From Pygmaiobacter massiliensis (GTDB lineage: Bacteria; Bacillota; Clostridia; Oscillospirales; Ruminococcaceae), in assembly GCF_900199435.1 (NCBI RefSeq), contig NZ_OAML01000003.1:1381166-1445165 (forward strand): a stretch of 64,000 nucleotides of DNA, read 5' to 3'. Each line of letters opens with the position of its first letter. Position 1 is the stretch's first letter. The notes beneath the pieces are model-generated. The model did no database searches and was not told the origin of the DNA. It worked only from the letters and a program-made list of their open reading frames with translations. Below, in pieces: positions 27,411 to 42,307 of the stretch. The position numbers and the translations under genes are program-made.

Positions 27411-29150
27411 ATGATGATTAACAAACGGCTTATCGGTACAGTGCCGGAAAGCAAAAAATACATCGCCGGTAACGTGGCGCTGCAATGGACTGCACTTGTC
27501 GCCAACATCGGCATGATTTTAGCTGTAACGCGGTTGATGCAAAAACTGTATGAAGGCACTGCGAGCAACAAAACGCTGGCGTTTACAGCCTTGGTAATCA
27601 CCTGCGCCGTTGCAGTACGTTTTGTTTGCACCAAAGCCGCCACAAAAATGGGGTTTCTTTCTTCGAAATCAGTAAAAAGCACGCTGCGGCAGCTGATTTA
27701 TGAAAAACTGCTGCGGCTGGGGCTGACCTATAAAGAAAAAGCTTCGGCAGCCGAGGTGGTACAAGTAGCCGTAGAAGGTGTTGATCAGTTGGAGACCTAT
27801 TTCGGTGCTTACCTTCCGCAGTTTTTTTACAGTATGCTGGCACCGCTTACCCTATTTGTGGTACTTTGCTTTATCAACGTTCCCGCTGCGTCGGTGCTGC
27901 TGGTTTGTGTGCCGCTCATTCCCATTACCATTGCAGCCGTGCAAACCTTTGCAAAAAAATTGCTCGCGAAATATTGGGGAGAGTACACCACGCTGGGCGA
28001 CACTTTCTTGGAAAACCTGCAGGGTCTTACCACGATGAAGATTTACCAGGCAGATGAGTTTAAACATCAGGAAATGAACGAGCAGTCTGAGCGCTTTCGT
28101 AAAATCACGATGAAAGTGCTTACCATGCAGCTAAACTCAATTACGCTGATGGACGCACTGGCCTACGGTGGCGCCGCGCTGGGCGTGATTATGGCAGCCA
28201 CACAGTTGCGCAGCGGCGCGGTAAGCCTTGGCGGTGCGCTGGCGATTATTTTGCTGTCGGCAGATTTCTACATACCGATGCGGCTTTTGGGCAGTTTTTT
28301 TCATATTGCGATGAACGGCATGGCCGCAAGCGAAAAGATTTTTCGTCTGCTGGATATCGCAGAGCCTAATATGCGTGGTACGGCTGATTTTCCGCAAGAC
28401 AGCACGATTCGCTGCGAAAATCTTCGCTTTTCTTACGAACCGGAGCGTGAGATTCTTCACGGGATTAACTTTTCTTTCCCCGCAGGCAGTTTCACTGCAA
28501 TCGTAGGGGAATCCGGCTGCGGTAAATCTACGGTGGCTTCTATCCTCATGGGGTGCAACAGCGATTACACCGGCAGAGTTACCATTGGCGGCATAAACTT
28601 GAAAGACATTTCTGAAGCGAGCCTGATGCGCGGCATGACCTATGTAGGTTTTGACAGCTACCTGTTTAAGGGCACGGTGCGCGAAAACCTGCGCATGGGT
28701 GCACCGGCTGCAACCGAGGATGCCCTGTGGCAGGTGCTTGAGCAGGTAAACTTGGCAGAGTTTCTGCGTAGTGAAAACGGGCTGGACACCCGACTTGCCG
28801 AAAAGGGCAGCAATTTTTCGGGCGGGCAGCGCCAGCGCTTGGCTTTGGCACGCGCAATGCTGCACGACAGCCCGGTTTACATTTTTGACGAGGCAACTTC
28901 TAATGTTGATGTCGAAAGTGAAAATGAGATTATGGAAGAGATTCAGCAATTGGCAAAGACGAAAACAGTCATTCTCATTACGCATCGCCTTGCGAATGCC
29001 CAAGGCACAGACGTCATTTGCGCAATGGAGAGCGGCATAGTGAAAGAGTTCGGTACCCATGCCGAGCTGCTTGCAAAAGGCGGCGTTTATGCGCAGCTTT
29101 GGAATACGCAGCAAAATCTGGAGCAGTTTGCACAGGAGGCGAAAGCATGA
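27411..29150 (+). CDS. ABC exporter half-transporter 1 (permease fused to ATPase)
   Basis: A 579-residue type I exporter half: six helices over residues 20-315, then an ATPase with Walker A GESGCGKST near residue 365, signature FSGGQRQRLALARAML, Walker B VYIFDEATSNVD and the ITHRLANA switch His. It resembles CydD-type halves. It overlaps the next gene by ATGA, so the two form a heterodimer. Behind putative iron-type operators and followed by a nitrous-oxide-stimulated-promoter family gene and a YbaN gene, it may export a thiol, haem precursor or metallophore; the substrate is not shown. Confidence 0.9.
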   Translation: MMINKRLIGTVPESKKYIAGNVALQWTALVANIGMILAVTRLMQKLYEGTASNKTLAFTALVITCAVAVRFVCTKAATKMGFLSSKSVKSTLRQLIYEKLLRLGLTYKEKASAAEVVQVAVEGVDQLETYFGAYLPQFFYSMLAPLTLFVVLCFINVPAASVLLVCVPLIPITIAAVQTFAKKLLAKYWGEYTTLGDTFLENLQGLTTMKIYQADEFKHQEMNEQSERFRKITMKVLTMQLNSITLMDALAYGGAALGVIMAATQLRSGAVSLGGALAIILLSADFYIPMRLLGSFFHIAMNGMAASEKIFRLLDIAEPNMRGTADFPQDSTIRCENLRFSYEPEREILHGINFSFPAGSFTAIVGESGCGKSTVASILMGCNSDYTGRVTIGGINLKDISEASLMRGMTYVGFDSYLFKGTVRENLRMGAPAATEDALWQVLEQVNLAEFLRSENGLDTRLAEKGSNFSGGQRQRLALARAMLHDSPVYIFDEATSNVDVESENEIMEEIQQLAKTKTVILITHRLANAQGTDVICAMESGIVKEFGTHAELLAKGGVYAQLWNTQQNLEQFAQEAKA

Positions 29151-30805
29151 AAAAAAGAAGCAATTTCAAGGTTTGCATGCGGCTGATTGGCCTGGTAAAC
29201 CCGCTTGCAGGATATATGACACTAGCAGTGCTGCTCGGCACGCTGGGGCATTTGTGCGCTGTCATGATTCCGGTATTCGGCGGTATGGCACTGCTGGATA
29301 TTCTGGGTATGAGCGTTCACTTTACGGCGAAAACGGTTTTTGTGGCAGTTTTAATTTTTGCGCTGCTGCGCGGCGTACTTCGCTATGGCGAGCAATACTG
29401 CAACCACTTTATTGCGTTTAAACTGCTCGCTTTATTACGAGATAAAGTATTTGCTGCACTGCGGCGTTTGTGCCCGGCAAAGTTGGAGAGCAAAGATAAA
29501 GGCAACCTCATCTCCATCATCACCTCGGATATTGAGCTGCTCGAAGTTTTTTATGCGCATACCATTTCACCGGTACTTATTGCTTTTCTGATGGCGCTTT
29601 TTATGGGCAAAATCATCGGGCATCTGCACCCGGTGTTGGCGGCGGTTGCACTGGTGGCATACCTTACCGTAGGTGTTATTATTCCGCTCGTCACCTCTAG
29701 ATGCAGCAAAGATAATGGGCTGAGCTTTCGTCGTCAATCCGGCGAACTGAGCACCTTTGTGCTGGATAGTTTGCGCGGGCTTTCAGAAACGCTGCAATAT
29801 AATGCCGGCCAAGAACGCCTGGCAGAAATGCAAAGCAGAACAGAGCAGCTGTCTGCCCAGCAAAAAGCAATGAAAGACCGAGCGGGAACCAACACTGCAA
29901 TGACGCAGACGGCTATTTTGCTGTTTGATTTACTGATGCTTTTTGTGGCGTCGGCATTGCTGCTTAGCGGACAGATTAACTTTTCTCGCGCGCTGATTGC
30001 TGTGATTACACTGATGAGCTCGTTTGGCCCGTTTGTGGCACTGGCAGACCTCGGCAGCGGATTGCAAAACACCTTTGCCGCAGGCAATCGCGTGCTGGAT
30101 ATTTTAGAAGAAAAACCGGTAGCAGAAGAGATTACCGGCAAAACAGATTGTGAGTTCTCCGGTGCAAGCGTTGAAAATTTAAGTTTTTCTTACGGTGGTG
30201 AAGAGATTTTGCAAAATGTAAAGGCGAACTTCCCTGAAGGAAAGGTGATTGGCGTTACCGGCAAAAGCGGTAGCGGAAAATCTACCTTACTGAAGCTGCT
30301 GATGCGCTTTTGGGTGGCAGAGCAAGGCGAAATTGCTGTTTCTGGGCACAGCATCAACGAGATCAACACCACCTGTCTGCGAGAGATGCAGGGATTTGTC
30401 ACACAGGAAACGCACCTTTTTCAGGATAGCATTGCAAATAATTTGCGCATTGCAAAACTGGATGCAACCCAAGCTGAACTTGAAGAAGCCTGCAAAAAAG
30501 CGGCGGTGCATGATTTTATCAGCAAGCTGCCACAAGGCTACGAAACACATGTCGGCGAGCTTGGTGACACGCTTTCTGGCGGCGAGCGTCAACGTATCGG
30601 CTTGGCACGTGCCTTTTTGCACGATGCACCATTTATGCTGCTGGACGAGCCGACCAGCAACCTCGACAGCCTGAATGAAGCAGTGATTTTGAAATCTATT
30701 GCCGAGCAGCGCAAGGGCAAAACCGTGGTGTTGGTATCTCACCGTGCGTCTACCATGCGGCTGGCAGATAGCGTGTACAGCGTAGAGCATGGCCGGGTGA
30801 GCTAA
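29147..30805 (+). CDS. ABC exporter half-transporter 2 (permease fused to ATPase)
   Basis: A 552-residue partner of the previous protein. Walker A GKSGSGKST, signature LSGGERQR, Walker B FMLLDEPTSNLD and the VSHRAST switch region are all intact, so both nucleotide sites could be active. The ATG at 29147 has AGGAGG 7 nt upstream and overlaps the upstream stop; open frame further up is a shadow of that gene. Confidence 0.9.
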   Translation: MKKRSNFKVCMRLIGLVNPLAGYMTLAVLLGTLGHLCAVMIPVFGGMALLDILGMSVHFTAKTVFVAVLIFALLRGVLRYGEQYCNHFIAFKLLALLRDKVFAALRRLCPAKLESKDKGNLISIITSDIELLEVFYAHTISPVLIAFLMALFMGKIIGHLHPVLAAVALVAYLTVGVIIPLVTSRCSKDNGLSFRRQSGELSTFVLDSLRGLSETLQYNAGQERLAEMQSRTEQLSAQQKAMKDRAGTNTAMTQTAILLFDLLMLFVASALLLSGQINFSRALIAVITLMSSFGPFVALADLGSGLQNTFAAGNRVLDILEEKPVAEEITGKTDCEFSGASVENLSFSYGGEEILQNVKANFPEGKVIGVTGKSGSGKSTLLKLLMRFWVAEQGEIAVSGHSINEINTTCLREMQGFVTQETHLFQDSIANNLRIAKLDATQAELEEACKKAAVHDFISKLPQGYETHVGELGDTLSGGERQRIGLARAFLHDAPFMLLDEPTSNLDSLNEAVILKSIAEQRKGKTVVLVSHRASTMRLADSVYSVEHGRVS

Positions 30806-31143
30806 TGAAACAACAAGATAAGCGCGAGCGGGAAAAGCAACTGGTAAGCGAAATGATTCAGCTTTATTGCCGCAAAAAGCATGGCGCTTTAGAAGGGTTG
30901 TGTGCTGATTGTGCCGCGTTGGAGGCGTATGCCAGAGCGCGCAGTGATAAGTGCCCGTTTATGGAAACAAAGACGTTTTGTTCTAACTGCAAGGTGCATT
31001 GCTATAACGCGGAGATGCGCGAAAAAATTCGCGAAGTGATGCGTTTTGCAGGACCGCGGATGCTGTTTGTGCACCCTGTTATGGCGGTGCGACATGTAAT
31101 AGAAAGCACCCGGGAAAAGCGAAGAAAGGCAGAGAGTCAATGA
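30805..31143 (+). CDS. Nitrous oxide-stimulated promoter family protein
   Basis: A 112-residue cytosolic protein with a conserved cysteine set, GLCADCAAL, KCPFMETKTFCSNCKVHCY, that probably binds a metal. The family name comes from a promoter-linked gene and its biochemical role is unknown. It commonly sits beside YbaN-like proteins and such ABC exporters in Clostridia. The start overlaps the exporter stop by one base (TAATG). Confidence 0.85.
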   Translation: MKQQDKREREKQLVSEMIQLYCRKKHGALEGLCADCAALEAYARARSDKCPFMETKTFCSNCKVHCYNAEMREKIREVMRFAGPRMLFVHPVMAVRHVIESTREKRRKAESQ

Positions 31144-31541
31144 AATTGAAAAAAGTGATTTATATTACCCTTGGCTGTATTGGGGTAGGGCTTGGGGCAC
31201 TGGGCGCTGCACTGCCACTGCTGCCGGCTTTTCCATTTCTAATGTTGGCAGCGTGCTGCTTTGGCAAAAGCTCTGAGCGTTTGCATCATTGGTTTGTTGC
31301 GACAAAGCTTTATAAAAACAATCTTGAATCCTTCGTAAAAGGGGAGGGCATGACATGGAAAACCAAGCTGCGCATTATGCTTCTGGTTACCGTGACCATG
31401 GCATTTGGATTTTTGATGATGGGCAGAGTCCCAATTGGTCGCATGATCCTTGCAGCAGTCTGGGTGTTTCATATCGTCTATTTTGTGTTTGGGATTAAAA
31501 CCATACCTCCAACGGTAACGGCACAGCCGAAAACCGAATAA
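31140..31541 (+). CDS. YbaN/DUF454 family membrane protein
   Basis: A 133-residue inner-membrane protein with hydrophobic segments near residues 8-35 and 80-120 and the family stretch LPLLPAFPFLMLAACCFGKS followed by SERLHHWF. Function unknown. The ATGA overlap puts it in the exporter operon, whose terminator follows directly. Confidence 0.88.
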   Translation: MKLKKVIYITLGCIGVGLGALGAALPLLPAFPFLMLAACCFGKSSERLHHWFVATKLYKNNLESFVKGEGMTWKTKLRIMLLVTVTMAFGFLMMGRVPIGRMILAAVWVFHIVYFVFGIKTIPPTVTAQPKTE

Positions 31542-31580
31542 AAAAATCCGCAGAAGATAGCTTCTGCGGATTTTTATTTT
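31542..31580 (+). terminator. Terminator of the ABC exporter operon
   Basis: A 15-bp perfect stem (AAAAATCCGCAGAAG / CTTCTGCGGATTTTT) with an ATAG loop and TTTTT ATTTT. Confidence 0.92.
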
Positions 31581-31902: not shown

Positions 31903-31925
31903 GGTAAAGAAAGGATGTGACGCGA

Positions 31926-33056
31926 TTGCTGGAGCTTTTTATTTTATTGCTGTTTGCGGGCGAGATCATTTATCTGGTTTATGAAAACCGCCGCGTCTTG
32001 CGCAACCGGGCAAAGCTACAGCATGTGGTTTACGTCAATGGTATCCGCGGCAAATCTTCTGTAACAAGGTTGATTGACGCAGGTCTGCGCGCTGGGGGAA
32101 AGCGATGCTTCTGCAAAACCACGGGAACCTTGCCAATGACAATTAATGCGGAGGGGGGCGAACAACAGATTCTCCGCCGCGGGCCGGCCAATATCCGAGA
32201 ACAGCTTTGGGTGTTGCAACGTGCCGCAGAAAATAGCGCGGAGGTTTTGATAGCAGAGTGCATGGCGGTAGACCCGGCACTGCAAAAACTGTCGCAGCAA
32301 AAAATGATGCGTGCTGACATCGGCGTTATTACCAATGTGCGGCTGGATCACACCGATGAGATGGGGGGCACGCTGTCAGAAATTTGTGATTCGCTTTGCT
32401 CGATGATTCCAGAAAATGGTGTGGTATTTACCGCAGATGCAATTTTTTATCCGCAGATAGCAAAAAATGCAGCACAAAAAGGCGCCAAGGCGATTCTGGC
32501 AACCGCAGAAAATTTACCGGCACAAGCCATAGATTTTGACGAGAACGTAGCATTGGCGTTGGCAGTGTGTGCACACCTTGGCGTGCCGCGCCCGCAAGCA
32601 TTGCAGGGGATGGCGCATTATTGTAAGGACCCGTATGCGCTTTCCTTGCATCGGTTGCCGGGTGGTGCACTTTTTGTAGGGGCATTATCGGTCAACGACC
32701 CACAATCGTCCGAACAGGTGTGGCATCAGATGAAAGAGCGACACGAACTCGCACAGCGCCGGCTAGTGTTGCTGATTAACAACCGACGGGACCGCGGCTA
32801 CCGCACCGCACATATGCTTTTGCTGGCCAAACGGCTAAAGCCGGACGAGGTATGGCTGCTTGGCGCGGCCCAAAAAGCTTTTGCGCGCAAACTGCAAAAA
32901 GTGGGGCCAGTACCGGTGCGCTGCTTTGCCTCCGCTGACGAGCTTGATCTTGCAGCCGATGAAAATATGGTTATTTTTGCTGCGGGCAATATTGCCGCAG
33001 AAGGCCATTTGCTAATGGCAAGAGTGAGAGAGGAGGGGGATGCGCTTGTACCATGA
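31926..33056 (+). CDS. pgsB: Poly-gamma-glutamate synthase subunit PgsB/CapB
   Basis: About 376 residues. This is the ATP-dependent amide ligase that polymerises glutamate through its side chain. It has an N-terminal membrane helix, then the ligase P-loop VNGIRGKSSVTRLIDAG, KTTGT, and AECMAVDPALQ with GVITNVRLDHTDEMG, all close to Bacillus PgsB. I prefer the TTG at 31926, spaced 10 nt from AAGGA; a GTG at 31917 sits too close to it. It overlaps pgsC by 17 bases. Membrane bound, with PgsC. Confidence 0.9.
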   Translation: MLELFILLLFAGEIIYLVYENRRVLRNRAKLQHVVYVNGIRGKSSVTRLIDAGLRAGGKRCFCKTTGTLPMTINAEGGEQQILRRGPANIREQLWVLQRAAENSAEVLIAECMAVDPALQKLSQQKMMRADIGVITNVRLDHTDEMGGTLSEICDSLCSMIPENGVVFTADAIFYPQIAKNAAQKGAKAILATAENLPAQAIDFDENVALALAVCAHLGVPRPQALQGMAHYCKDPYALSLHRLPGGALFVGALSVNDPQSSEQVWHQMKERHELAQRRLVLLINNRRDRGYRTAHMLLLAKRLKPDEVWLLGAAQKAFARKLQKVGPVPVRCFASADELDLAADENMVIFAAGNIAAEGHLLMARVREEGDALVP

Positions 33057-33480
33057 TATCGTAATTTTAGGGGTTGTACTCAGCCTGATTTATTATGAGT
33101 GCACCGGCCTTTCTCCCGCAGGGTTGGTTGTACCGGGGTATATTGCCCTTTGTCTGCAAACACCGGCGCGTATTGGCTATACGCTGGCGGTTGTTCTTGC
33201 CACGTGGGGACTCTCAAGGTTGCTTGGCAACGTCACCATTTTATATGGGCGGCGCAGATTTGCGGTTATGATTCTTCTTTCGTTTGCCATCAACTGGGCA
33301 ATTTTAAAAACAGGTTTGCTGGTACATAACCCCGGGCTTATCGGTGCGTTGGTGCCGGGCATTATTGCACAGGAATTTGAAAAACAAGGCATTGCAAAAT
33401 CTCTCGTTTCGCTCTCCATCGTTACGGGGATACTGGCGCTTATTATGCTTTGGCTTGGCATACCGGTGTTTCCGGTATGA
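33040..33480 (+). CDS. pgsC: Poly-gamma-glutamate biosynthesis protein PgsC/CapC
   Basis: A 146-residue integral membrane protein with four to five helices and the family start LSLIYYECTGLSPAGLVVPG. It forms the synthase/export core with PgsB. The start lies inside the end of pgsB and its stop overlaps pgsW by ATGA, so translation is coupled. Confidence 0.92.
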   Translation: MRLYHDIVILGVVLSLIYYECTGLSPAGLVVPGYIALCLQTPARIGYTLAVVLATWGLSRLLGNVTILYGRRRFAVMILLSFAINWAILKTGLLVHNPGLIGALVPGIIAQEFEKQGIAKSLVSLSIVTGILALIMLWLGIPVFPV

Positions 33481-34619
33481 GCAAAAAACGAGTTTACAGC
33501 CTGTTGTTCGCTGCGGCACTTTTGCTTTGGAGCATTGTTGGCGTTGCAAGCACAATGGGCACCCGAGCAAAAACCACCTGCTACGAGGCACAGCTGGATG
33601 CCTACCGCAGAATGGAGACTGCCATGCAGGCGGTAAAACACTACAAGCAGGCGTACGGCATCGAATTTTCACCGCTCGATTTGCGTAAAACCGGAATGAT
33701 TGGCGAAGAGTACAACGGCATTACCACCACGCTTGGCGCGCTGGAAGCTAAGCGCACCACGGCAGACCCCAACATGGCTGCGATGGTCGTTCGTATGTTC
33801 ACTGAGGCGGGGCTTGCGGCTGGCGACAATGTTGGCGCCGGATTTTCTGGTTCTTTCCCGGCGCTGAACCTTGCGGTAATTGCTGCCTGCGACGCGATGA
33901 AACTGAACCTGACCTATATTTCTTCGGTTGGCGCTTCAACCTATGGTGCCAATAACCCGCAGCTGACCTTTCCGGAAATGGCTCATCTGCTCTACATGGA
34001 CGGGCTGATTTCTACTGACAGCCGTCTTGTGACCATGGGCGGCGACTACGACACCGGGCATGGTATGGATGAGACGCTTGCGGCTGAGATAGAGCAGCGG
34101 CTGCAAACCGCAGGACTTGAGTTGATGAAACAGACTGACTATAACGCAAACCTTACCGCGCGCCGCCAACTGTATGAAGCCGCGGGGATTGATTGCTTTG
34201 TAGCGGTGGGCGGCAATACCACCTCGCTTGGACAGGGCGAAACAACGGTAGTTGGGCAAGGGCTTTTGGAAAGCACGTTATCGGTCGGGCGAATAGACGA
34301 AAAAAGCGGTCTTGTGCAATGGTATCAAGCGCAGGGGTTGCCGGTCATTAATCTGCTCAACATAAAGCAGATTGTTGCTGACTACGCGTTACCGTTTGAT
34401 CCGCTTGTGACGTCCGTAGCCGGAGAAAGTGCTGTGTTTTATACCACAGCTTATCCTCGTGGGCTGATTACTGCCGCGCTTGCGAGCGTGCTGGCACTGC
34501 TGGTCTGGCTTTGGTGGATGCGCCGCCCGGTAGACCCTGAAACCCAGCTTTCCATCGGGGCAAAAGAAAACGGTGGAAAACCCTATGCGGAAAGGGGAAC
34601 AAGACCTTGGAAAAAATAG
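33477..34619 (+). CDS. pgsW: Poly-gamma-glutamate system protein PgsW
   Basis: A 380-residue protein of the family that replaces PgsA in some PGA loci. One N-terminal helix (residues 7-24), a large extracytoplasmic domain with GVGASTYGANNPQLTF-like text and conserved VAVGGNTTSLGQGE, and a C-terminal helix near residues 345-362 with a short basic tail. By analogy with PgsA/CapA it should help polymer transport or length control. The ATG at 33477 overlaps the pgsC stop; an upstream ATG at 33450 lies within pgsC. Confidence 0.85.
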   Translation: MSKKRVYSLLFAAALLLWSIVGVASTMGTRAKTTCYEAQLDAYRRMETAMQAVKHYKQAYGIEFSPLDLRKTGMIGEEYNGITTTLGALEAKRTTADPNMAAMVVRMFTEAGLAAGDNVGAGFSGSFPALNLAVIAACDAMKLNLTYISSVGASTYGANNPQLTFPEMAHLLYMDGLISTDSRLVTMGGDYDTGHGMDETLAAEIEQRLQTAGLELMKQTDYNANLTARRQLYEAAGIDCFVAVGGNTTSLGQGETTVVGQGLLESTLSVGRIDEKSGLVQWYQAQGLPVINLLNIKQIVADYALPFDPLVTSVAGESAVFYTTAYPRGLITAALASVLALLVWLWWMRRPVDPETQLSIGAKENGGKPYAERGTRPWKK

Positions 34620-36004
34620 AAGTGCGGCGCTTTTATAAAAGAAAATTTACAGTTGGATTGCTGTTGGTAGCCCTCGGCATTTTGATGCCGCGCCTTTTTA
34701 CCGTGATGCAGCTGCATATTCCGCGAGATTTAATAACGGCAATCCGCGAAGAAAACACGGTATATGTAATGATAGCTGCGCTGAAATTGGTGAGCCTGAA
34801 TATTCTGCGCTGTCTGCCGCATTATCTCGGCACTTTTATTATGGCCGATTCGATTGTTCTTACACGGGGCGGCAAAGAGCTGCGGTTGGAAAAAGCGGCG
34901 ATTGTACTGATTATCATTCCACAGGTGTATTTTTTAATTGAACGGCTATTTGATATTCGGTACGATTTTGGCGTGCCCGCGTTTGTGCTGATTGGGCTGC
35001 TGCTCTTTCTCGGTAGAGCAGACTATAACCTGGTCAGTCTGCCGAAAAAACTGATGATGGTCACAATGTTTATTTCGGCGGTGCAGTTTCTCGATGTGAT
35101 GCCAGCACTCTCCGCTTTGCCGGTGGGGCGGGGAGAAACCTCGACAGAAATTAAGTTTACAGCAGCATTTCTCGAGGCCGAAGGCGTGCTGCAATCGATG
35201 GCACTGTTGTTTTTTGTGCTGTTTATGCTGGTTGGCCTGCTGCTTTACATGCTGGTGCGAGACGAAAATAATTTGCGCGCAGTAGGCGAACTGAAAAAGC
35301 AGAATGAAGAAATGATGATGGAAACCCGCATACGCGTACTGGAAAATCGAACCTATGCCGAAATGCGGCATTTGGTACACGATTTAAAATCTCCGCTTAC
35401 CTCGGCACAGGCATTGGTGAGCCTTGTGAAGCTGGCCAGTGAACAGCGTGGAGACTTGCAAGAGCAGGTGTACTTACAAAAAATAGAATCCTCGATTGAA
35501 CGAATGAGCGGAATGATTTCTGAGATTCTCAACGAAAACCATTTTACTCCGATTACTACGCAAAGCTTATTTGACGCAGTGTTGGCAGATATTTCGGTTT
35601 CGGAATATGCAAGCTTAGTAGAAGTGTATAACGATGCACCGAATGCTGTGATAGAAGTGAATAAAATTCGCTTTGTGCGTGCACTGGTCAACCTAATTGA
35701 AAACGCTTTTTATGCTGTAGATAAGCAATCCGGGCGGATTGGGCTATCCGCAGTGTACAGCAATCAGGAACAGGAACATTATATTATTTTACGCGTGGAA
35801 GACAACGGAAGAGGCATTCCGCAGGACGTAATGCAGCAGATTTGGGAAAGTGGATTTTCTACTCGTTCTTCGCACGGGCTGGGGCTAAGTTTTGTCAAGC
35901 AGGTTGTTACCAGTTCGGGAGGAACCATCCACATGGAAAGCAGGGCAGACGAGGGAACCGACGTTACCATTGTACTGCCAGAAGGGAAGGAAACAGATGA
36001 ATAA
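34607..36004 (+). CDS. Membrane sensor histidine kinase of the PGA operon
   Basis: A 465-residue kinase. The N-terminal ~215 residues hold about seven hydrophobic helices with no large extracytoplasmic loop, then a coiled linker, a HisKA-type H-box with His258 (VHDLKSPL) and an ATPase domain with NLIENAFYA, VEDNGRGIP and GLGLSFVKQV. The start is TTG at 34607, with AGGGG upstream, overlapping the end of pgsW. Its signal may be membrane-linked. It pairs with the regulator that overlaps its stop. Confidence 0.88.
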   Translation: MEKIEVRRFYKRKFTVGLLLVALGILMPRLFTVMQLHIPRDLITAIREENTVYVMIAALKLVSLNILRCLPHYLGTFIMADSIVLTRGGKELRLEKAAIVLIIIPQVYFLIERLFDIRYDFGVPAFVLIGLLLFLGRADYNLVSLPKKLMMVTMFISAVQFLDVMPALSALPVGRGETSTEIKFTAAFLEAEGVLQSMALLFFVLFMLVGLLLYMLVRDENNLRAVGELKKQNEEMMMETRIRVLENRTYAEMRHLVHDLKSPLTSAQALVSLVKLASEQRGDLQEQVYLQKIESSIERMSGMISEILNENHFTPITTQSLFDAVLADISVSEYASLVEVYNDAPNAVIEVNKIRFVRALVNLIENAFYAVDKQSGRIGLSAVYSNQEQEHYIILRVEDNGRGIPQDVMQQIWESGFSTRSSHGLGLSFVKQVVTSSGGTIHMESRADEGTDVTIVLPEGKETDE

Positions 36005-36620
36005 CCGCACACTTACCATTCTTGCCATCGACGATGACGAAGAAATTCGTTTTGCGCTCAAAGCCGTGTTTGACTTTCAAGGCTGGCAAGCCCTAACGGC
36101 AAGCCATGTGAAAGAAGGAATTGCGCTTTTTCGAGAACACCGGCCCGACATAGTGCTGATTGACTACCACATGCCAGAAATCAACGGCATTGAGGGGGTG
36201 CGTATGCTGCGGCAAATTGGCGGGGATGTGCCGATTATTGTGTTTACGATTGACGAGGACCAGCAGGTGGCAGATCGCTTTTTGGAAGCCGGAGCAAGCG
36301 ATTTTGCCCTTAAACCCATCAAGGCCCCCGACATTATCAGCCGTATTAAATTGCATGTGCGTCTGATGGAGAGCCGAAAGGCTGCTGAGCCGGTGGCCAA
36401 AGGGATTGGCGGTGCAACGTTAGATTTGATTCGCGACTGCCTGACCCGCGCAGGAGAAACCTACCTGACTGCAAATGAGATAGCAGTTGCTACCGGGCTT
36501 GCATACCAAACAACCTATCGCTATTTACAGCACCTGGTCGCAGAAGGTGTATTAGAAAGTAAAAGCAGCTATGGTAAGATTGGCAGACCCAAACAAAGTT
36601 TTCGATGGATAGAAAAATAA
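35997..36620 (+). CDS. Response regulator with C-terminal winged-helix-type domain
   Basis: A 207-residue regulator: receiver with phosphoacceptor Asp56 (VLIDYHMPE) and Lys in DFALKPIKAP, then a DNA-binding domain with LTANEIAVATGLAYQTTYRYL like CitB/DcuR-type regulators. GGAAGG precedes the ATG at 35997, which lies 8 bases inside the kinase gene. It likely controls the PGA synthesis unit, the ggt unit or both. Confidence 0.88.
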   Translation: MNNRTLTILAIDDDEEIRFALKAVFDFQGWQALTASHVKEGIALFREHRPDIVLIDYHMPEINGIEGVRMLRQIGGDVPIIVFTIDEDQQVADRFLEAGASDFALKPIKAPDIISRIKLHVRLMESRKAAEPVAKGIGGATLDLIRDCLTRAGETYLTANEIAVATGLAYQTTYRYLQHLVAEGVLESKSSYGKIGRPKQSFRWIEK

Positions 36621-36649
36621 AACGCATATACAATTGAATATATATGCAT

Positions 36650-36695
36650 AAGGCTGGCGGACGCTTTTTAAGAAGTTCGGCAGCCTTTTGTATTT
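36650..36695 (+). terminator. Terminator of the PGA synthesis and two-component operon
   Basis: A 7-bp outer stem (AAGGCTG / CAGCCTT) plus inner CG and AC pairs and a T-rich loop, with tail TTTGTATTT. Confidence 0.75.
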
Positions 36696-36851
36696 CCATG
36701 CGAAGAGAAGAAATGTTTCATATTATGAAAATTGCTTGTTTTAGAAAGAAAAAACTTACATTTCGCCCAAATCAGGAAGAAAAACGGATTTATATTCCAA
36801 AAAACGTTGCTTTTTTTAGTCAAACTGCCACGAAAGATAAAAGAGAAAAAA

Positions 36852-36880
36852 TAGACCAAGCTATTTTTATGTGCTAAGAT
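36852..36880 (+). promoter_or_regulatory. Probable promoter of the ggt operon
   Basis: TAGACC, a 17-nt spacer and TAAGAT put the start near 36887, giving an 84-nt leader before ggt. The -35 box is imperfect. The AT-rich bases 36696-36851 show no gene. Confidence 0.5.
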
Positions 36881-36970
36881 AGGGCTAAGATAAATGTGAA
36901 AGATTCGTGATTAATGAAAAAATATTAAGTTTTCTTTCGCGTTAAATGATTAAAAGGAGTATGAGAGAAG

Positions 36971-38776
36971 ATGGGAAAACGTTTTCTAGCACTGGCACTT
37001 GCGTGTGCAATGGCTTTATCTTTTGCAAGTTGCGGCGCGGCATCCAGTTCTGCACCGGCAGCCTCCTCTAGCACATCGGGCTCTGCGACCGATGCAAGCT
37101 ACACCTCGCTGGACGATTTTGTTTTATGGGGGGATGATCTGAGTCTGACCAAAACTGGTCGTGATGCCACCGGCAGCACCGGCGTGGTTTCTGCTGGCAA
37201 ATATGAGGCATCCAAAATTGGCAAAATCATTATGGAGCAGGGCGGCAACGCAGTAGACGCGGCAGTCGCAGTTGGCTTTACGCTTGGTTTTGCAGAGGCA
37301 AATGCAACCGGCCTTGGCGGTGGCGGCTTTATGACGCTGCACATCGCAGAAACTGGCGAAGACCTTTTCATCAACTTCCGTGAGTCTGCACCGGCAGCAG
37401 CCACACCGGATATGTGGCAGACCTATACCGATGCAGACGGCAACACCAAAGTTATTGGCAACCAGAACTGGGTTGGCGGCAAATCGGCAGGTGTCCCCGG
37501 CTTTGTGGCGGGCCTGCTTTACGCGCTGGATAACTATGGTACCATGACTCGTGAGCAGGTGCTCGCGCCGGTCATTGAGCTGGCAAATAAGGGCCTTACC
37601 GTTACCCCGACTCTGGCCAACGACATGAAAAACAGCTACGATAGCCTTACCCTTTTTGCGGAGAGCGGCGAGATTTTTCTCAAAGATGTCGACGGCATGA
37701 AACTTCCGTACGAAGTTGGCGAGACGTTCAAAAATCTGGATTACGCCAAGACTCTCGAGCTGATTTCTGAGCAGGGCGCAGACGTTTTCTACAAAGGCGA
37801 AATCGCAGAATCCATTGTCGCCAATGCAAACAAATACGGCGGCGTGTTTACGATGGAAGATCTCGCAAACTATGAAGTTGAAGTTATGAAGCCGGTGGTA
37901 GGCAGCTACCGCGGTTACGATATTATTTCTTCTCCTTCTCCGTCCTCCGGCGGCACCATCGTGCTGGAGATACTTAATATCCTCGAGAACTTTGATTTGC
38001 CCTCGATGGAAGATTGCTCGGCAGAAGAGCTGCACATCATTGCTGAGGCATTTAAGCTGGCTTACGCTGACCGCGGCGAATACATGGGCGACACCAAATT
38101 TGTTGATGTGCCCATCAATGGCCTGCTCAGCAAAGACTACGCAAAGAAACTCGCCGGCAAAATCGATGCCGAAGTTGCTCTCGAAAATGTTCTGCCCGAC
38201 GATCCTTGGATGTTCGAGCACGAAGATACCACACACTACTCGGTAGCCGACGCAAAAGGCAACATGGTCTCGGTGACTTCTACGGTCAATGGCTACTTCG
38301 GTAGCAGCGTTGCAGTAGATGGCTATGGCTTTGTACTGAACAACGAAATGGCTGACTTCGTGGTTGGTCCGGATCACCCGAACTCCATCGCAGGCAACAA
38401 AACCCCGCTGAGCTCGATGAGCCCGACCATCATCATGAAAGACGGCAAGCCTTTCGCCGTACTGGGCAGCCCGGGCGGCACCACCATCATTGCTACGGTT
38501 GCACAGGTTGTCTCTAACCTCATCGACCACGGCATGACCATGCAGGAAGCCGTCGATGCACCCCGTATCTCCGGTTTCCGCAATAACACCATCAGCTACG
38601 AAACCCGCATTGGCGAAGATGTCATTGCTGAGCTGACCGAGATGGGCCACATCTGTAACCCGAACGACGAATGGAACCGCAGCTTTGGTTCTGTTAACGC
38701 AGTACGTTATGCAGAAGACGGTACCCTTGACGGCGCAGGCGACCCCCGCCGTGACGGTAAGGCACTTGGCTTCTAA
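36971..38776 (+). CDS. ggt: Gamma-glutamyltransferase, lipoprotein form (GGT/CapD family)
   Basis: A 601-residue N-terminal nucleophile hydrolase precursor with a lipoprotein signal (SFASC) and a Ser/Ala linker, so it acts outside the membrane. Family marks are GLGGGGFMTLH, SPSPSSGGTI and LGSPGGTTII. Self-cleavage should occur before Thr420 in DTTHYSV, making that Thr the nucleophile of the small subunit. It cleaves or transfers gamma-glutamyl groups. Directly after the PGA synthesis unit it probably trims PGA or, like CapD, attaches it to the wall. AAGGAG precedes the ATG. Confidence 0.93.
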   Translation: MGKRFLALALACAMALSFASCGAASSSAPAASSSTSGSATDASYTSLDDFVLWGDDLSLTKTGRDATGSTGVVSAGKYEASKIGKIIMEQGGNAVDAAVAVGFTLGFAEANATGLGGGGFMTLHIAETGEDLFINFRESAPAAATPDMWQTYTDADGNTKVIGNQNWVGGKSAGVPGFVAGLLYALDNYGTMTREQVLAPVIELANKGLTVTPTLANDMKNSYDSLTLFAESGEIFLKDVDGMKLPYEVGETFKNLDYAKTLELISEQGADVFYKGEIAESIVANANKYGGVFTMEDLANYEVEVMKPVVGSYRGYDIISSPSPSSGGTIVLEILNILENFDLPSMEDCSAEELHIIAEAFKLAYADRGEYMGDTKFVDVPINGLLSKDYAKKLAGKIDAEVALENVLPDDPWMFEHEDTTHYSVADAKGNMVSVTSTVNGYFGSSVAVDGYGFVLNNEMADFVVGPDHPNSIAGNKTPLSSMSPTIIMKDGKPFAVLGSPGGTTIIATVAQVVSNLIDHGMTMQEAVDAPRISGFRNNTISYETRIGEDVIAELTEMGHICNPNDEWNRSFGSVNAVRYAEDGTLDGAGDPRRDGKALGF

Positions 38777-38809
38777 ATCTTACACAATTTATTAAATTGC
38801 TCTTTTTAT

Positions 38810-38847
38810 GGAATAAGCACAATGGGCTTGCCCGTTGTGCTTATTCC
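38810..38847 (+). other. Strong hairpin between ggt and the lipoprotein gene
   Basis: A perfect 13-bp stem (GGAATAAGCACAA / TTGTGCTTATTCC) around a 12-nt GC-rich loop with no T-run. It is more likely an RNA stabiliser or processing site than a terminator. Confidence 0.6.
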
Positions 38848-38909
38848 CCTAAATAGGGGCATGAGAAAAAAGAGAAAAACCAACAACCACCCATCAGGAG
38901 GATATTACG

Positions 38910-39524
38910 ATGATGAAAAAAATGATTGCCGTTGCAATGGCAGCTATGCTCGCACTTTCCATGACCGCTTGCGGCAGCAAACCGGCTTCTTCGGCAGCGG
39001 GCAGCACCGCAACAGGCAGCACCGCAACCGTAGAGGGACTGAAAGAGGCCATCGCAGAGCAGCCTGCACTGCTTACCAGCGTAGGCCAGAGTGCTGACGT
39101 TGAAATGGTAAAAGTAATGATGGACAAAGCTGAGCTGAAATACAGCATCGACAATATGTCCGACGGCAGCGACCTCGGCGATGCAAAAACGCTGGTGCTT
39201 GCCATCGGCGGTTCTTCCAAAGGCCTTGGTGCTGCCGGTATTGACGCAGACCAGGAGATTGCGCGTGTAGAGAAGCTGATTAACGCAGCGGACGAAGCAG
39301 GCCTTACCATCCTTGCGCTGCACATCGGCGGCGAAGCACGCCGTGGCGACCTTTCTGATAAATTTATCGCCCCCTGCTTTACCAAGGCAGATTACGCTAT
39401 CGTTGTTAAAGAGGGCAACAAAGACGGCATGATGACCGAGCTTGCCTCCAAAGCTGGCATCCCGATGGATGAAGTGACTTCGATGGGCGAAGTGCTCACC
39501 CCGCTGAAAGCTGCTTTTAAATAA
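38910..39524 (+). CDS. DUF6305-like lipoprotein of the PGA turnover operon
   Basis: A 204-residue lipoprotein (LSMTAC signal) with a Ser/Thr/Ala linker and one compact domain containing LVLAIGGSSKGLGAAGID and ALHIGGEARRGDLSDKFI. I place it in the DUF6305 family from memory. The function is unknown. Its position before a DctM-like permease suggests an extracytoplasmic ligand-binding partner, but it is much smaller than a DctP protein. AGGAGG precedes the ATG. Confidence 0.7.
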   Translation: MMKKMIAVAMAAMLALSMTACGSKPASSAAGSTATGSTATVEGLKEAIAEQPALLTSVGQSADVEMVKVMMDKAELKYSIDNMSDGSDLGDAKTLVLAIGGSSKGLGAAGIDADQEIARVEKLINAADEAGLTILALHIGGEARRGDLSDKFIAPCFTKADYAIVVKEGNKDGMMTELASKAGIPMDEVTSMGEVLTPLKAAFK

Positions 39525-39605
39525 GCACTGCGGTACCGCGCGGCGCGCGGGCAGAGAAAAAACGCTTATTTTCGTGTGTGGCTGCACACGATTCGGAGGT
39601 ATGAA

Positions 39606-40883
39606 ATGAGTCACGAGTTAATTATTTTTCTCGCGATGGTGGTCACCTTTGCCGCTGGTTGCTTTGCACTGAAACTGCCGGTAAGCATTTCCATGGTGCT
39701 TTCCGCAGTTATCGGTGCGCTGGTTGGCGGGCAGGGCATTCCCCTGCGCCATCTCGTTGAGGGCACCTTCTCTTATGTAGACACCGTGCTGGTTATTACC
39801 TGCGCGATGATTTTTATGAAGGTGGTGCAGGAATCCGGTGCGTTGGACGCACTGGCTTCGCTGATTATTGAAAAATTCCATAAAGTGCCCGCACTTTTGC
39901 TTTGCCTTATCATGCTGGTTATCATGTTCCCCGGTATGATTACCGGCTCTTCCACCGCGGCAGTGCTTTCTGCCGGTTCCATCATGGCACCGGTGCTGAT
40001 GTTAATGGGCATCCCCGCGCTGGAAACAGCAAGCATTATTGCTATGGGCGGCCTGCTGGGTATGATTGCGCCCCCGGTCAACATCCCTGCAATGATTATC
40101 GGTGGCGGTATTGATATTCCCTATGTTGGATTTGAGCTGCCGCTTACGCTGCTTACTTTCCCGCTTGCTATTTTTACCGTGCTGCTATTTGGCTACAAAT
40201 ATGTCAAAAAGCTGGACTATGAAGCAATTAAGCTGAAACTGAACAATGAGCCGCGCGAAAAGTATGGCTTCCGTATCTTTATTCCTATTTTGCTTGCGCT
40301 GGTATTGATGGTACTGAACAAAGCGGTACCGTCTTTCCCGAGCCTGGGCATGCCGCTGATTTTCCTCATCGGTGCGGCGGTAGGCCTGTTCACCGGCAAC
40401 AAAATTAAGGTTGTTACCGTCTGCAAAGACGCAGTGCAGAGTGTTTTGCCAGTACTCGGTATTTTGATGGGCGTAGGCATGTTTATTCAGGTGATGACGC
40501 TAACCGGCGTGCGTGGCTTTATCGTAACCAGCTGCCTGAGCCTGCCCAACGGTTTGTTGTACGTGGCAATGGCGGTTGCTATCCCGCTATTCGGTGCAGT
40601 TTCCTCTTACGGTGCAGCGTCGGTACTGGGCGTCCCCTTCCTGTTGGCTTTTATGAGCAGCAACCAGATTATCACTGCCTCTGCTATTTCTCTGATTGCA
40701 GCACTGGGCGACATGATGCCGCCGACGGCACTAGCTGGCATTTTTGCAGCACAGGTGGTTGGCATGAAAAAATATACGCCGGTCCTTAAAAAGTGCCTTA
40801 TCCCTGCGCTGGTGCTTATTGTCTGGGCAATTCTGTTTATCATTTTCGCCAACCAGCTTGCACCTTTTATCGTACTGAAATAA
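39606..40883 (+). CDS. TRAP DctM-like large permease subunit
   Basis: A 425-residue membrane protein with about twelve helices and the DctM-type TGSSTAAVLSAGSIMAPVL and GLLGMIAPPVNIPAM segments. TRAP permeases use ion gradients to take up carboxylates or amino acids. No ordinary DctQ subunit or DctP binding protein is beside it; instead a small lipoprotein and a 48-residue membrane peptide flank it. In this operon glutamate or gamma-glutamyl oligomers are attractive substrates. The ATG at 39606 has GGAGG upstream. Confidence 0.82.
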   Translation: MSHELIIFLAMVVTFAAGCFALKLPVSISMVLSAVIGALVGGQGIPLRHLVEGTFSYVDTVLVITCAMIFMKVVQESGALDALASLIIEKFHKVPALLLCLIMLVIMFPGMITGSSTAAVLSAGSIMAPVLMLMGIPALETASIIAMGGLLGMIAPPVNIPAMIIGGGIDIPYVGFELPLTLLTFPLAIFTVLLFGYKYVKKLDYEAIKLKLNNEPREKYGFRIFIPILLALVLMVLNKAVPSFPSLGMPLIFLIGAAVGLFTGNKIKVVTVCKDAVQSVLPVLGILMGVGMFIQVMTLTGVRGFIVTSCLSLPNGLLYVAMAVAIPLFGAVSSYGAASVLGVPFLLAFMSSNQIITASAISLIAALGDMMPPTALAGIFAAQVVGMKKYTPVLKKCLIPALVLIVWAILFIIFANQLAPFIVLK

Positions 40884-40898
40884 CAGGAGGTTAACACT

Positions 40899-41045
40899 AT
40901 GATTACCCTGATTTACCGAGGCATTATCGGTCTCGTACTGGTATTTACGGTGTGGAATCTCTTCACCGAAGAAAAAGTAACGAACCAGGCAAATGCAGCG
41001 CTGGTGGTCATTCCGATGATTCTCAGATTGCTGATGATTAAGTAA
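40899..41045 (+). CDS. Small 48-residue membrane peptide
   Basis: MITLIYRGIIGLVLVFTVWN begins a 48-residue protein with two hydrophobic stretches (residues 2-20 and 33-47). It has a perfect AGGAGG 8 nt upstream and lies 15 nt after the permease and 9 nt before the M14 gene, whose own ribosome site overlaps its stop. It is too regular in position to be chance. It may take the place of a DctQ-type small subunit, but there is no homology that I can name. Confidence 0.75.
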   Translation: MITLIYRGIIGLVLVFTVWNLFTEEKVTNQANAALVVIPMILRLLMIK

Positions 41046-41054
41046 GGAGGACAG

Positions 41055-42206
41055 ATGATGAAGAAAAACACCATTACCGGTGCCATCTGCCTCGTGCTTG
41101 CTTTGGCGATTGCGACAGTTACTGGCATCAATTTTATAGAGCTTAAAAACCCCGGTGACATTATCCCCGGTCCCGGCGTTTCCGAAGTTCATATGCTTAG
41201 CGAATATTTTGACGGCATTGCTGGCACCAACGGCGATACCGAAATCTATGTGATGCAGGGCAAAAAGCCCGGCGGCAAAGTGCTCATTTTGGGTGGCACT
41301 CACGGCAACGAGCCTTCCGGCTATATGAGCGCTATTACTTTTATTGAAAATGCAGTGGTGGACGAGGGTACCGTTTACGTCATCCCCTACACCAACCGCA
41401 GCGGTATGACGCACAACGATGCTCAGGAGGCTTCGCCTCAGTATATCCACTTTAGCAACAAAGATGGCGCTGTCCGTACTTTCCGCTACGGCTCTCGTGC
41501 AACCAACCCAATCGACCAGTGGCCCGACCCGGATGTATATGTGCACGCGGCTTCCGGGCAGACACTTTCCGGCTCTGAAACACGCAACATTAACCGCGCT
41601 TATCCCGGTGTGGAAAACGGAAATCTCACTGAGAAAGTGGCATATGCCATTACTCAGATGATCAAAGCTGAAAATGTAAACCTTACCTTTGATTTGCACG
41701 AAGCATCGCCCGAATACCCGGTTATTAATGCGACTGTTTCTCATGAAAAAGGCATGAGCGTTGCTTCGGTTGGCCTTATGGAGCTGCAGTTTGCCGGTAT
41801 TTCGATGGCGCTGGAGCCCTCGCCGGTCAACCTGCACGGCCTTACCCACCGCGAACTGGGCGACTATACCGACACGATTCCACTTCTGATGGAAACCGCT
41901 AACGCCTCTCAGGGCCGTTTGCGCGGCGCTACCAACGAAGCGTTGGCATTGACCGGTATCGACAAAGCCTATGAGAAGAGCGCCGAACTCGGCATGCTCT
42001 ATGTGCCCTACGATGAAAACGGCCACCCGATTGAAGAACGTGTCGGCCGCCACCTGCAAGGCATTATTGAGTATACCAAATCCTACTCAGAACAGTATGC
42101 AGACGCACCTGTTAGTTTCAGCAATGTGCCCGGCTATGCAGAACTGTTTACGGATTCTGACGGCAGCGACCTTGGCGGAGCTCGCTTGGGTCAATACCTG
42201 AACTAG
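41055..42206 (+). CDS. Membrane-anchored succinylglutamate desuccinylase/aspartoacylase-like (M14) metalloenzyme
   Basis: A 383-residue zinc enzyme. One N-terminal signal/anchor helix (residues 6-26), then the zinc motif GGTHGNEPSG (His and Glu), the NINRAYPG substrate-binding segment and the third ligand FDLHEASPEYP. The family removes acyl groups from glutamate or aspartate, and M14 relatives also include gamma-D-Glu carboxypeptidases. Its outside location in a PGA locus suggests hydrolysis of gamma-glutamyl or N-acyl-glutamate products. TAAGGAGG precedes the ATG. Confidence 0.85.
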   Translation: MMKKNTITGAICLVLALAIATVTGINFIELKNPGDIIPGPGVSEVHMLSEYFDGIAGTNGDTEIYVMQGKKPGGKVLILGGTHGNEPSGYMSAITFIENAVVDEGTVYVIPYTNRSGMTHNDAQEASPQYIHFSNKDGAVRTFRYGSRATNPIDQWPDPDVYVHAASGQTLSGSETRNINRAYPGVENGNLTEKVAYAITQMIKAENVNLTFDLHEASPEYPVINATVSHEKGMSVASVGLMELQFAGISMALEPSPVNLHGLTHRELGDYTDTIPLLMETANASQGRLRGATNEALALTGIDKAYEKSAELGMLYVPYDENGHPIEERVGRHLQGIIEYTKSYSEQYADAPVSFSNVPGYAELFTDSDGSDLGGARLGQYLN

Positions 42207-42262: not shown

Positions 42263-42307
42263 AAAAACCGCGCATCTCTCTGTTTGCAGAGCCGATGCGC
42301 GGTTTTT
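42263..42307 (+). terminator. Terminator of the ggt/PGA turnover operon
   Basis: A 13-bp stem (AAAACCGCGCATC / GATGCGCGGTTTT) topped by a second stem CTCTG/CAGAG and followed by TTGTTTTAT. Confidence 0.9.

What the first reader, a model, noticed from the sequence alone, without database searches (positions are those of the whole stretch)
31926..42206. Possible poly-gamma-glutamate production, trimming and recovery locus
pgsB-pgsC-pgsW with a two-component system is followed by an outside gamma-glutamyltransferase, a small lipoprotein, a DctM-like permease, a 48-residue membrane peptide and an anchored M14 metallo-deacylase. Synthesis and degradation genes side by side with a permease suggest that the cell makes PGA as capsule or store and can take back glutamate or short oligomers. 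The degradation/uptake half with this composition is not a standard PGA operon.
Basis: partly seen in the sequence, partly recalled or inferred. Interest (0 to 1): 0.7.

Follow-up and report, generated by a model that had tools for sequence, protein, structure and literature searches.

The report
Polyglutamate synthesis with a recycling module
This bacterium carries, beside the genes for a polyglutamate coat, a conserved gene set that probably digests that polymer outside the cell and takes the pieces back; the same pairing recurs across several phyla of mostly anaerobic bacteria and seems not to have been described.

Summary
Window 31917-42206 holds pgsB-pgsC-pgsW-HK-RR, then GGT, a DUF6305 lipoprotein, a DctM-like permease, a 48-residue membrane peptide and a membrane-anchored AstE/AspA-type M14 enzyme, as two hairpin-bounded units. 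PgsC genomes without PgsW never have it. Eighty permease loci from Clostridia, Fusobacteriota, Spirochaetota, Synergistota and KSB1/Calditrichota show the same set; 43 have pgs genes within 10 kb, and 29 of 35 other genomes have PgsC elsewhere. The 48-residue peptide is a real, unnamed microprotein (88 copies, C-terminal LR.L.IK). The GGT lacks the lid loop, like PGA-degrading Bacillus GGTs. The M14 model best matches Csd4 (Z 21.6), which cuts gamma-D-Glu amide bonds from the C-terminus, so it is more likely a gamma-glutamyl carboxypeptidase than a deacylase. DUF6305 is fused to an M14 domain in some pgs operons. Most likely a dedicated PGA turnover and uptake system of PgsBCW-type producers. 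No activity has been tested; transport substrate and direction are inferred.

The parts
31542..31575 (+). intrinsic terminator upstream of the pgs unit
   Evidence: 15-bp stem + T run; MFE -22.0, z -8.6
31917..33056 (+). pgsB, amide ligase of poly-gamma-glutamate synthase
   Evidence: TIGR04012 302 bits over cut-off; PF08245
33040..33480 (+). pgsC, membrane subunit
   Evidence: PF14102, TIGR04011 over cut-offs
33477..34619 (+). pgsW, poly-gamma-glutamate system protein
   Evidence: TIGR04332 332 bits, cut-off 100
34607..36004 (+). sensor histidine kinase with multi-pass N-terminus
   Evidence: HisKA + HATPase_c; same family beside DUF6305 in other loci
35997..36620 (+). response regulator, receiver + IclR-type HTH
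   Evidence: PF00072 + PF09339; conserved with HK
36644..36693 (+). hairpin between the two units, candidate terminator
   Evidence: MFE -24.4, z -3.7, 0 of 200 shuffles as stable
36971..38776 (+). GGT, lipoprotein-type gamma-glutamyltransferase, no lid loop, the only GGT of the genome
   Evidence: PF01019, TIGR00066; best PDB match B. licheniformis-type GGT 4y23, 15-residue spacing as in Bacillus vs 25 in E. coli; single copy
38910..39524 (+). DUF6305 lipoprotein, single Rossmann-like domain
   Evidence: PF19823 E 8e-53; AF2 pLDDT 92; no clear structural relative
39606..40883 (+). DctM-like (ion transporter superfamily) permease
   Evidence: PF06808 weak; own profile A1 finds 23/398 phylum genomes, all with PgsW
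40899..41045 (+). 48-residue conserved hydrophobic microprotein
   Evidence: 88 copies counting this one, at the same place in other loci, consensus ....iY..i.a.vl.....nlf.ek....q..aa.V.iPL.LR.L.IK; substitutions by codon position 0.30/0.14/0.55
41055..42206 (+). membrane-anchored M14-fold metallohydrolase (AstE/AspA family), likely gamma-glutamyl carboxypeptidase
   Evidence: PF24827; H83, E86, H215, E280, R181 invariant in 27 sequences; AF2 pLDDT 92.8, Csd4 Z 21.6
42265..42306 (+). intrinsic terminator of the second unit
   Evidence: MFE -26.1, z -7.0, T-rich tail

Best explanation
The locus is a two-unit poly-gamma-glutamate (PGA) economy. Unit 1: PgsB-PgsC, with PgsW, makes and exports PGA, and a multi-pass histidine kinase with an IclR-HTH response regulator controls the system. 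Unit 2 is a dedicated turnover module. GGT (extracytoplasmic, open active site) removes glutamate from the amino end of PGA. The anchored M14 enzyme removes residues from the carboxyl end by cutting the gamma-glutamyl amide bond. The DctM-like permease, with its 48-residue microprotein, carries released glutamate or short gamma-glutamyl oligomers back in. The DUF6305 lipoprotein docks or presents product to the M14 enzyme, the permease or the kinase. The glutamate can then feed fermentation: the genome has a 2-hydroxyglutaryl-CoA dehydratase pair near a carboxyltransferase. Shown: the genes, their conservation and co-occurrence with PgsW, intact catalytic residues, predicted folds, and the microprotein as coding sequence. 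Inferred: every biochemical activity, substrate, transport direction and the regulatory link.
For: Permease profile: 23 of 398 phylum genomes, all 23 with PgsW, 13 families sharing both; PgsC genomes without PgsW: 0 of 12 with permease. The gene set recurs in 80 loci of several phyla: 43 with pgs genes within 10 kb, 29 of 35 other genomes with PgsC elsewhere. Correlated pairwise distances among GGT, DUF6305, permease and M14 (0.73-0.86), and of pgsB with them (0.58-0.69). DUF6305 fused to an M14 domain inside pgs operons, C69 dipeptidases in the same operons. GGT closest to a Bacillus-type GGT and without lid loop; lid-loop-less GGTs are the PGA-degrading type (PMC8062742). GGT is the only one in the genome. 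[quoted passage not shown] metal ligands, general base and Asn-Arg carboxylate pair conserved. Host and relatives look like glutamate fermenters: HGD-D pair; C. symbiosum, C. tetanomorphum and Fusobacterium among the loci.
Against: No enzyme, transport or PGA assay. Permease substrate unknown; the wider superfamily also has efflux members. 37 of 80 loci have the module without adjacent pgs genes and several genomes carry many copies, so some copies may serve other gamma-glutamyl or N-acyl amino acids. One isolate (Flintibacter muris, L120) has permease + microprotein + M14 without a detected PgsC. DUF6305 also occurs beside Opp-type ABC transporters without PGA genes. The Arg86-equivalent of Csd4 was not found at the expected spacing. 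Distances correlate also through shared ancestry.
Confidence: 0.66

Rival explanations
1. Capsule finishing rather than recycling: GGT acts like CapD, cutting PGA and linking it to the cell wall, the M14 enzyme trims chain length, and the permease exports or balances ions for PGA secretion.
For: CapD is a GGT-family enzyme beside cap genes (PMC4497714; PMC8062742). Some loci carry two GGT genes.
Against: Window GGT scores far better with B. licheniformis-type GGT 4y23 (387 bits) than with CapD (150 bits, one chain). C69 dipeptidases and a permease in the same operons fit degradation and uptake better.
Confidence: 0.15
2. General gamma-glutamyl peptide scavenging: the module takes up glutathione and other gamma-glutamyl compounds, and neighbours pgs genes only because both concern glutamate.
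For: GGT and C69 dipeptidases classically act on glutathione and dipeptides (established knowledge); multi-copy modules away from pgs in several genomes.
Against: Permease and PgsW co-occur 23 of 23 in the phylum sample; PgsC without PgsW never with permease. Lid-loop-less GGT.
Confidence: 0.12
3. PgsBCW makes a different or modified gamma-linked polymer, not plain PGA, and the AstE/AspA-type enzyme removes an N-acyl cap or handles another amino acid.
For: The M14 enzyme belongs to the N-acyl amino acid deacylase family by sequence; I found no chemical analysis of a PgsW-type product other than the report on F. nucleatum, and whether that species has PgsW was not tested here.
Against: PgsB is over the PgsB equivalog cut-off; Fusobacterium relatives have the PgsBCW + module locus (L123, L130) and F. 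nucleatum is reported to make polyglutamate (cited in PMC3815933).
Confidence: 0.07

Closest known systems
Bacillus pgsBCA(E)-pgdS with unlinked ggt (B. subtilis)
   Same: PgsB/PgsC synthase; secreted GGT removes glutamate from the amino end of PGA, reuse as nitrogen source (PMC8062742; PMC4497714)
   Different: There ggt is unlinked, the endo-hydrolase is PgdS, and a CapA-type protein (PgsA) is part of the operon; PgsW, DUF6305, permease, microprotein and M14 enzyme are not part of it
B. anthracis capBCADE with CapD
   Same: A GGT-family enzyme encoded beside the synthase
   Different: CapD anchors PGA to peptidoglycan; window GGT is much closer to Bacillus GGT; no permease or M14 enzyme known there
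Helicobacter pylori Csd4 (M14-type D,L-carboxypeptidase)
   Same: Closest fold to the M14 model, Z 21.6; same type of metal site, Asn-Arg pair, C-terminal cleavage of a gamma-D-Glu amide bond
   Different: Csd4 has Gln in place of the first His, extra beta-barrel and Ig-like domains, and acts on peptidoglycan; 17% identity
AstE/AspA deacylases (DoeB/EutE, aspartoacylase)
   Same: Pfam family of the M14 enzyme, among the best folds
   Different: Those known are cytoplasmic (from memory); this one is membrane-anchored and expected outside by its N-terminal helix
TRAP transporters (DctPQM)
   Same: Large DctM-like subunit with a small membrane protein and an extracytoplasmic lipoprotein encoded beside it
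   Different: No DctQ- or DctP-family gene found; the small protein has 48 residues with two short hydrophobic stretches; DUF6305 is a 155-residue Rossmann-like domain

Membership tests
PgsBCW-type poly-gamma-glutamate synthase locus | PgsB, PgsC and PgsW over curated cut-offs, adjacent | tested here: met
PgsBCA/CapBCA operon of Bacillus | CapA/PgsA (PF09587) in the operon | tested here: not met
   no CapA in the locus; one PF09587 protein elsewhere in the genome, C2:181388
PGA-degrading, lid-loop-less GGT | GGT family with absent lid loop | tested here: met
   spacing 15 residues as in B. licheniformis-type GGT, 25 in E. coli
PGA-degrading, lid-loop-less GGT | hydrolysis of PGA | not testable with these tools
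   needs an enzyme assay
M14-fold / AstE-AspA metallohydrolase | HxxE...H metal site, catalytic Glu, fold | tested here: met
   invariant H83, E86, H215, E280 in 27 sequences; fold
Csd4 (Peptidase M99) | PF17033 family match and three-domain architecture | tested here: not met
   no PF17033 match for the window protein at E <= 0.001; one catalytic domain after the anchor; works-like only
TRAP transporter | DctM plus DctQ plus DctP | tested here: not met
   only the DctM-like subunit matches; DUF6305 model is Rossmann-like
CapD | closer to CapD than to GGT | tested here: not met
   150 bits to a CapD chain vs 387 bits to 4y23; peptidoglycan anchoring itself not testable

The most novel reading that the evidence does not exclude
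A previously undescribed, signal-regulated PGA recycling system (two-ended exo-digestion by GGT and a Csd4-like carboxypeptidase, a new permease with an obligate microprotein subunit, and DUF6305 as sensor or docking factor) that turns exported polyglutamate into an external glutamate reserve in anaerobic glutamate fermenters of several phyla.
Probability: 0.45. Interest if true: 0.75.

Novelty: new variant of a known kind. Interest (0 to 1): 0.6.

Why it matters
PGA is known mainly as a Bacillus capsule or slime. This locus points to a second, widespread PGA lifestyle in anaerobes in which synthesis, digestion and uptake are inherited together. It gives a first functional context to DUF6305 and to an unnamed microprotein, proposes a gamma-glutamyl carboxypeptidase, and makes the old question of whether PGA serves as a nutrient reserve testable by gene removal.

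Tried and rejected
Chance neighbourhood: rejected by conservation and co-occurrence. Unit occurring widely without pgs genes: tested, not seen at genome level in the phylum sample. CapD-type GGT: rejected on score. TRAP membership: rejected, no DctQ/DctP. DUF6305 by fold: Foldseek and VIA-align gave only generic Rossmann-like matches (best Z 9.1 to a sugar kinase, TM below 0.5), so no function from fold. Shared regulatory repeats between the two upstream regions: none convincing. Methylaspartate pathway marker PF06368: absent in the host. Literature: no paper for DUF6305 and none found describing this module; PgsW as a term led nowhere. The two Cloacimonadota PGA papers describe CapBC/CapBCA only.
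Full report
What is there. The window is G000:C1:1381166-1445165 of a 2.8 Mb, 3-contig genome. Unit 1: pgsB 31917-33056, pgsC 33040-33480, pgsW 33477-34619, histidine kinase 34607-36004, response regulator 35997-36620, overlapping one another. Unit 2: GGT 36971-38776, DUF6305 lipoprotein 38910-39524, permease 39606-40883, 48-residue peptide 40899-41045, M14 enzyme 41055-42206. A terminator precedes pgsB, a stable hairpin lies between the units and a terminator follows the M14 gene. GGT and DUF6305 have lipoprotein-type signal peptides and the M14 protein an N-terminal membrane helix (sequence), so all three are expected outside the membrane.

Is the pairing more than chance? DUF6305 is rare in the order (2 of 295 genomes over the cut-off) and present in 46 of 398 in the phylum. 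In the same 398 genomes PgsW was found in 26, PgsC in 36 and the permease, by a profile of 21 homologues at E <= 1e-40, in 23. All 23 permease genomes have PgsW, spread over 13 families; the three PgsW genomes without it are one weak fragment hit and two drafts. Of 12 genomes with a PgsC hit but no PgsW, none has the permease. Fisher p is about 2e-34 at genome level, without correction for relatedness.

A search of named genomes with the permease profile gave 80 loci from Clostridia (Clostridium symbiosum, C. tetanomorphum, Fusibacter, Anaerotruncus, Lutispora, Neofamilia), Fusobacteriota (Cetobacterium, Fusobacterium gastrosuis), Spirochaetota, Synergistota, KSB1 and Calditrichota. Their gene maps repeat GGT, DUF6305, permease, microprotein and M14, often with a second M14-like protein; 43 of 80 have pgs genes within 10 kb, in several different orders. 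Of 35 genomes whose module is not next to pgs, 29 have PgsC elsewhere; of the six without, five are drafts from metagenomes and one is an isolate, Flintibacter muris. Pairwise distances correlate among GGT, DUF6305, permease and M14 (0.73-0.86) and less with pgs genes, so the module travels as a block but can be re-paired with pgs.

The parts. GGT: the genome's only GGT. Its best solved relative is 4y23, a Bacillus-type GGT; its segment between the NNxMxDF and PLSSM motifs has 15 residues, as in Bacillus, against 25 in E. coli. The 50 module GGTs that could be parsed show the same short spacing; 31 others did not match the pattern. Lid-loop-less GGTs have an open site and degrade PGA (PMC8062742).

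M14 enzyme: AstE/AspA family by sequence. The AF2 model (pLDDT 92.8) aligns best with Csd4 (Z 21.6, 215 residues, 2.4 A), above pancreatic-type carboxypeptidases (about 18-19) and DoeB (18.4). Csd4 cuts the gamma-D-Glu-mDAP bond from the C-terminus, using a metal site, Glu222 and Arg94 that holds the terminal carboxylate (PMC4220969). The corresponding H83, E86, H215, E280 and R181 are invariant in 27 sequences and N180 in 26; this correspondence is read from motifs, not from superposed coordinates. A gamma-glutamyl carboxypeptidase is therefore a better guess than a deacylase, but it is a guess from fold and motif; the counterpart of Csd4 Arg86 was not located.

Microprotein: a 47-54-residue hydrophobic ORF sits between permease and M14 in nearly all loci where the two are adjacent. 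It was picked by length and hydrophobicity, not similarity, yet all 88 copies end in R-x(2-4)-hydrophobic-K/R/N, and 55% of substitutions fall in third and 14% in second codon positions. No Pfam or NCBIfam model matches it. It is most likely a small subunit of the permease (inference from position).

DUF6305: high-confidence model of one Rossmann-like domain without a clear relative. In three related pgs operons one copy is fused to an AstE/AspA-type domain (shown for L037 by Pfam; L040 and L042 have the same-sized protein in the same place). In other genomes without pgs genes it precedes a histidine kinase and response regulator of the same family as here, mostly beside an Opp-type ABC transporter. 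Both facts suggest an extracytoplasmic docking or sensing role.

Physiology. The genome has an adjacent 2-hydroxyglutaryl-CoA dehydratase pair close to a carboxyltransferase that resembles glutaconyl-CoA decarboxylase alpha (the last identification is partly from memory), and lacks methylaspartate mutase. C. symbiosum, C. tetanomorphum and Fusobacterium species, members or relatives of the locus carriers, are classical glutamate fermenters (PMC8473912). This makes a PGA reserve plausible, not shown.

Verdict. Observation confirmed; interpretation supported in its core and corrected in detail. PGA synthesis and GGT digestion are known, so the kind is known; the coupled module with DUF6305, permease, microprotein and Csd4-like enzyme appears undescribed in the open papers searched, with the limit that subscription literature was not searchable.

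Noticed in passing
L035, L044, L046, L048-L050, L065, L067, L069-L073 (e.g. L046:9549-18005): DUF6305-HK-RR triad beside a five-gene Opp-type ABC transporter, without PGA genes: a conserved candidate three-part sensing system with an unusual response regulator.
   Followed up: partly
L037:9024-10229, L040:9024-10229, L042:9024-10223: DUF6305 domain fused to an AstE/AspA-type domain inside pgsBCW-HK-RR operons (Pfam run on L037 only).
   Followed up: partly
L037:305-3542, L040:390-3600, L062, L064: C69-family dipeptidases with signal-like N-termini next to the module, possibly the last digestion step.
   Followed up: partly
L170:4743-13559 and L161, L167, L171, L177-L179: Spirochaete loci with two tandem, diverged permease-M14 pairs (GGT-PERM-M14-DUF6305-PERM-M14-M14b).
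   Followed up: no
window 30805-31541: YgbA_NO (PF11756) and DUF454 (PF04304) genes follow an ABC exporter pair (27411-30805) just upstream of the pgs unit, ended by the terminator at 31542.
   Followed up: no
L124:15096-18824: In Clostridium transplantifaecale the module is followed by a sodium/glutamate symporter gene (PF03616).
   Followed up: no
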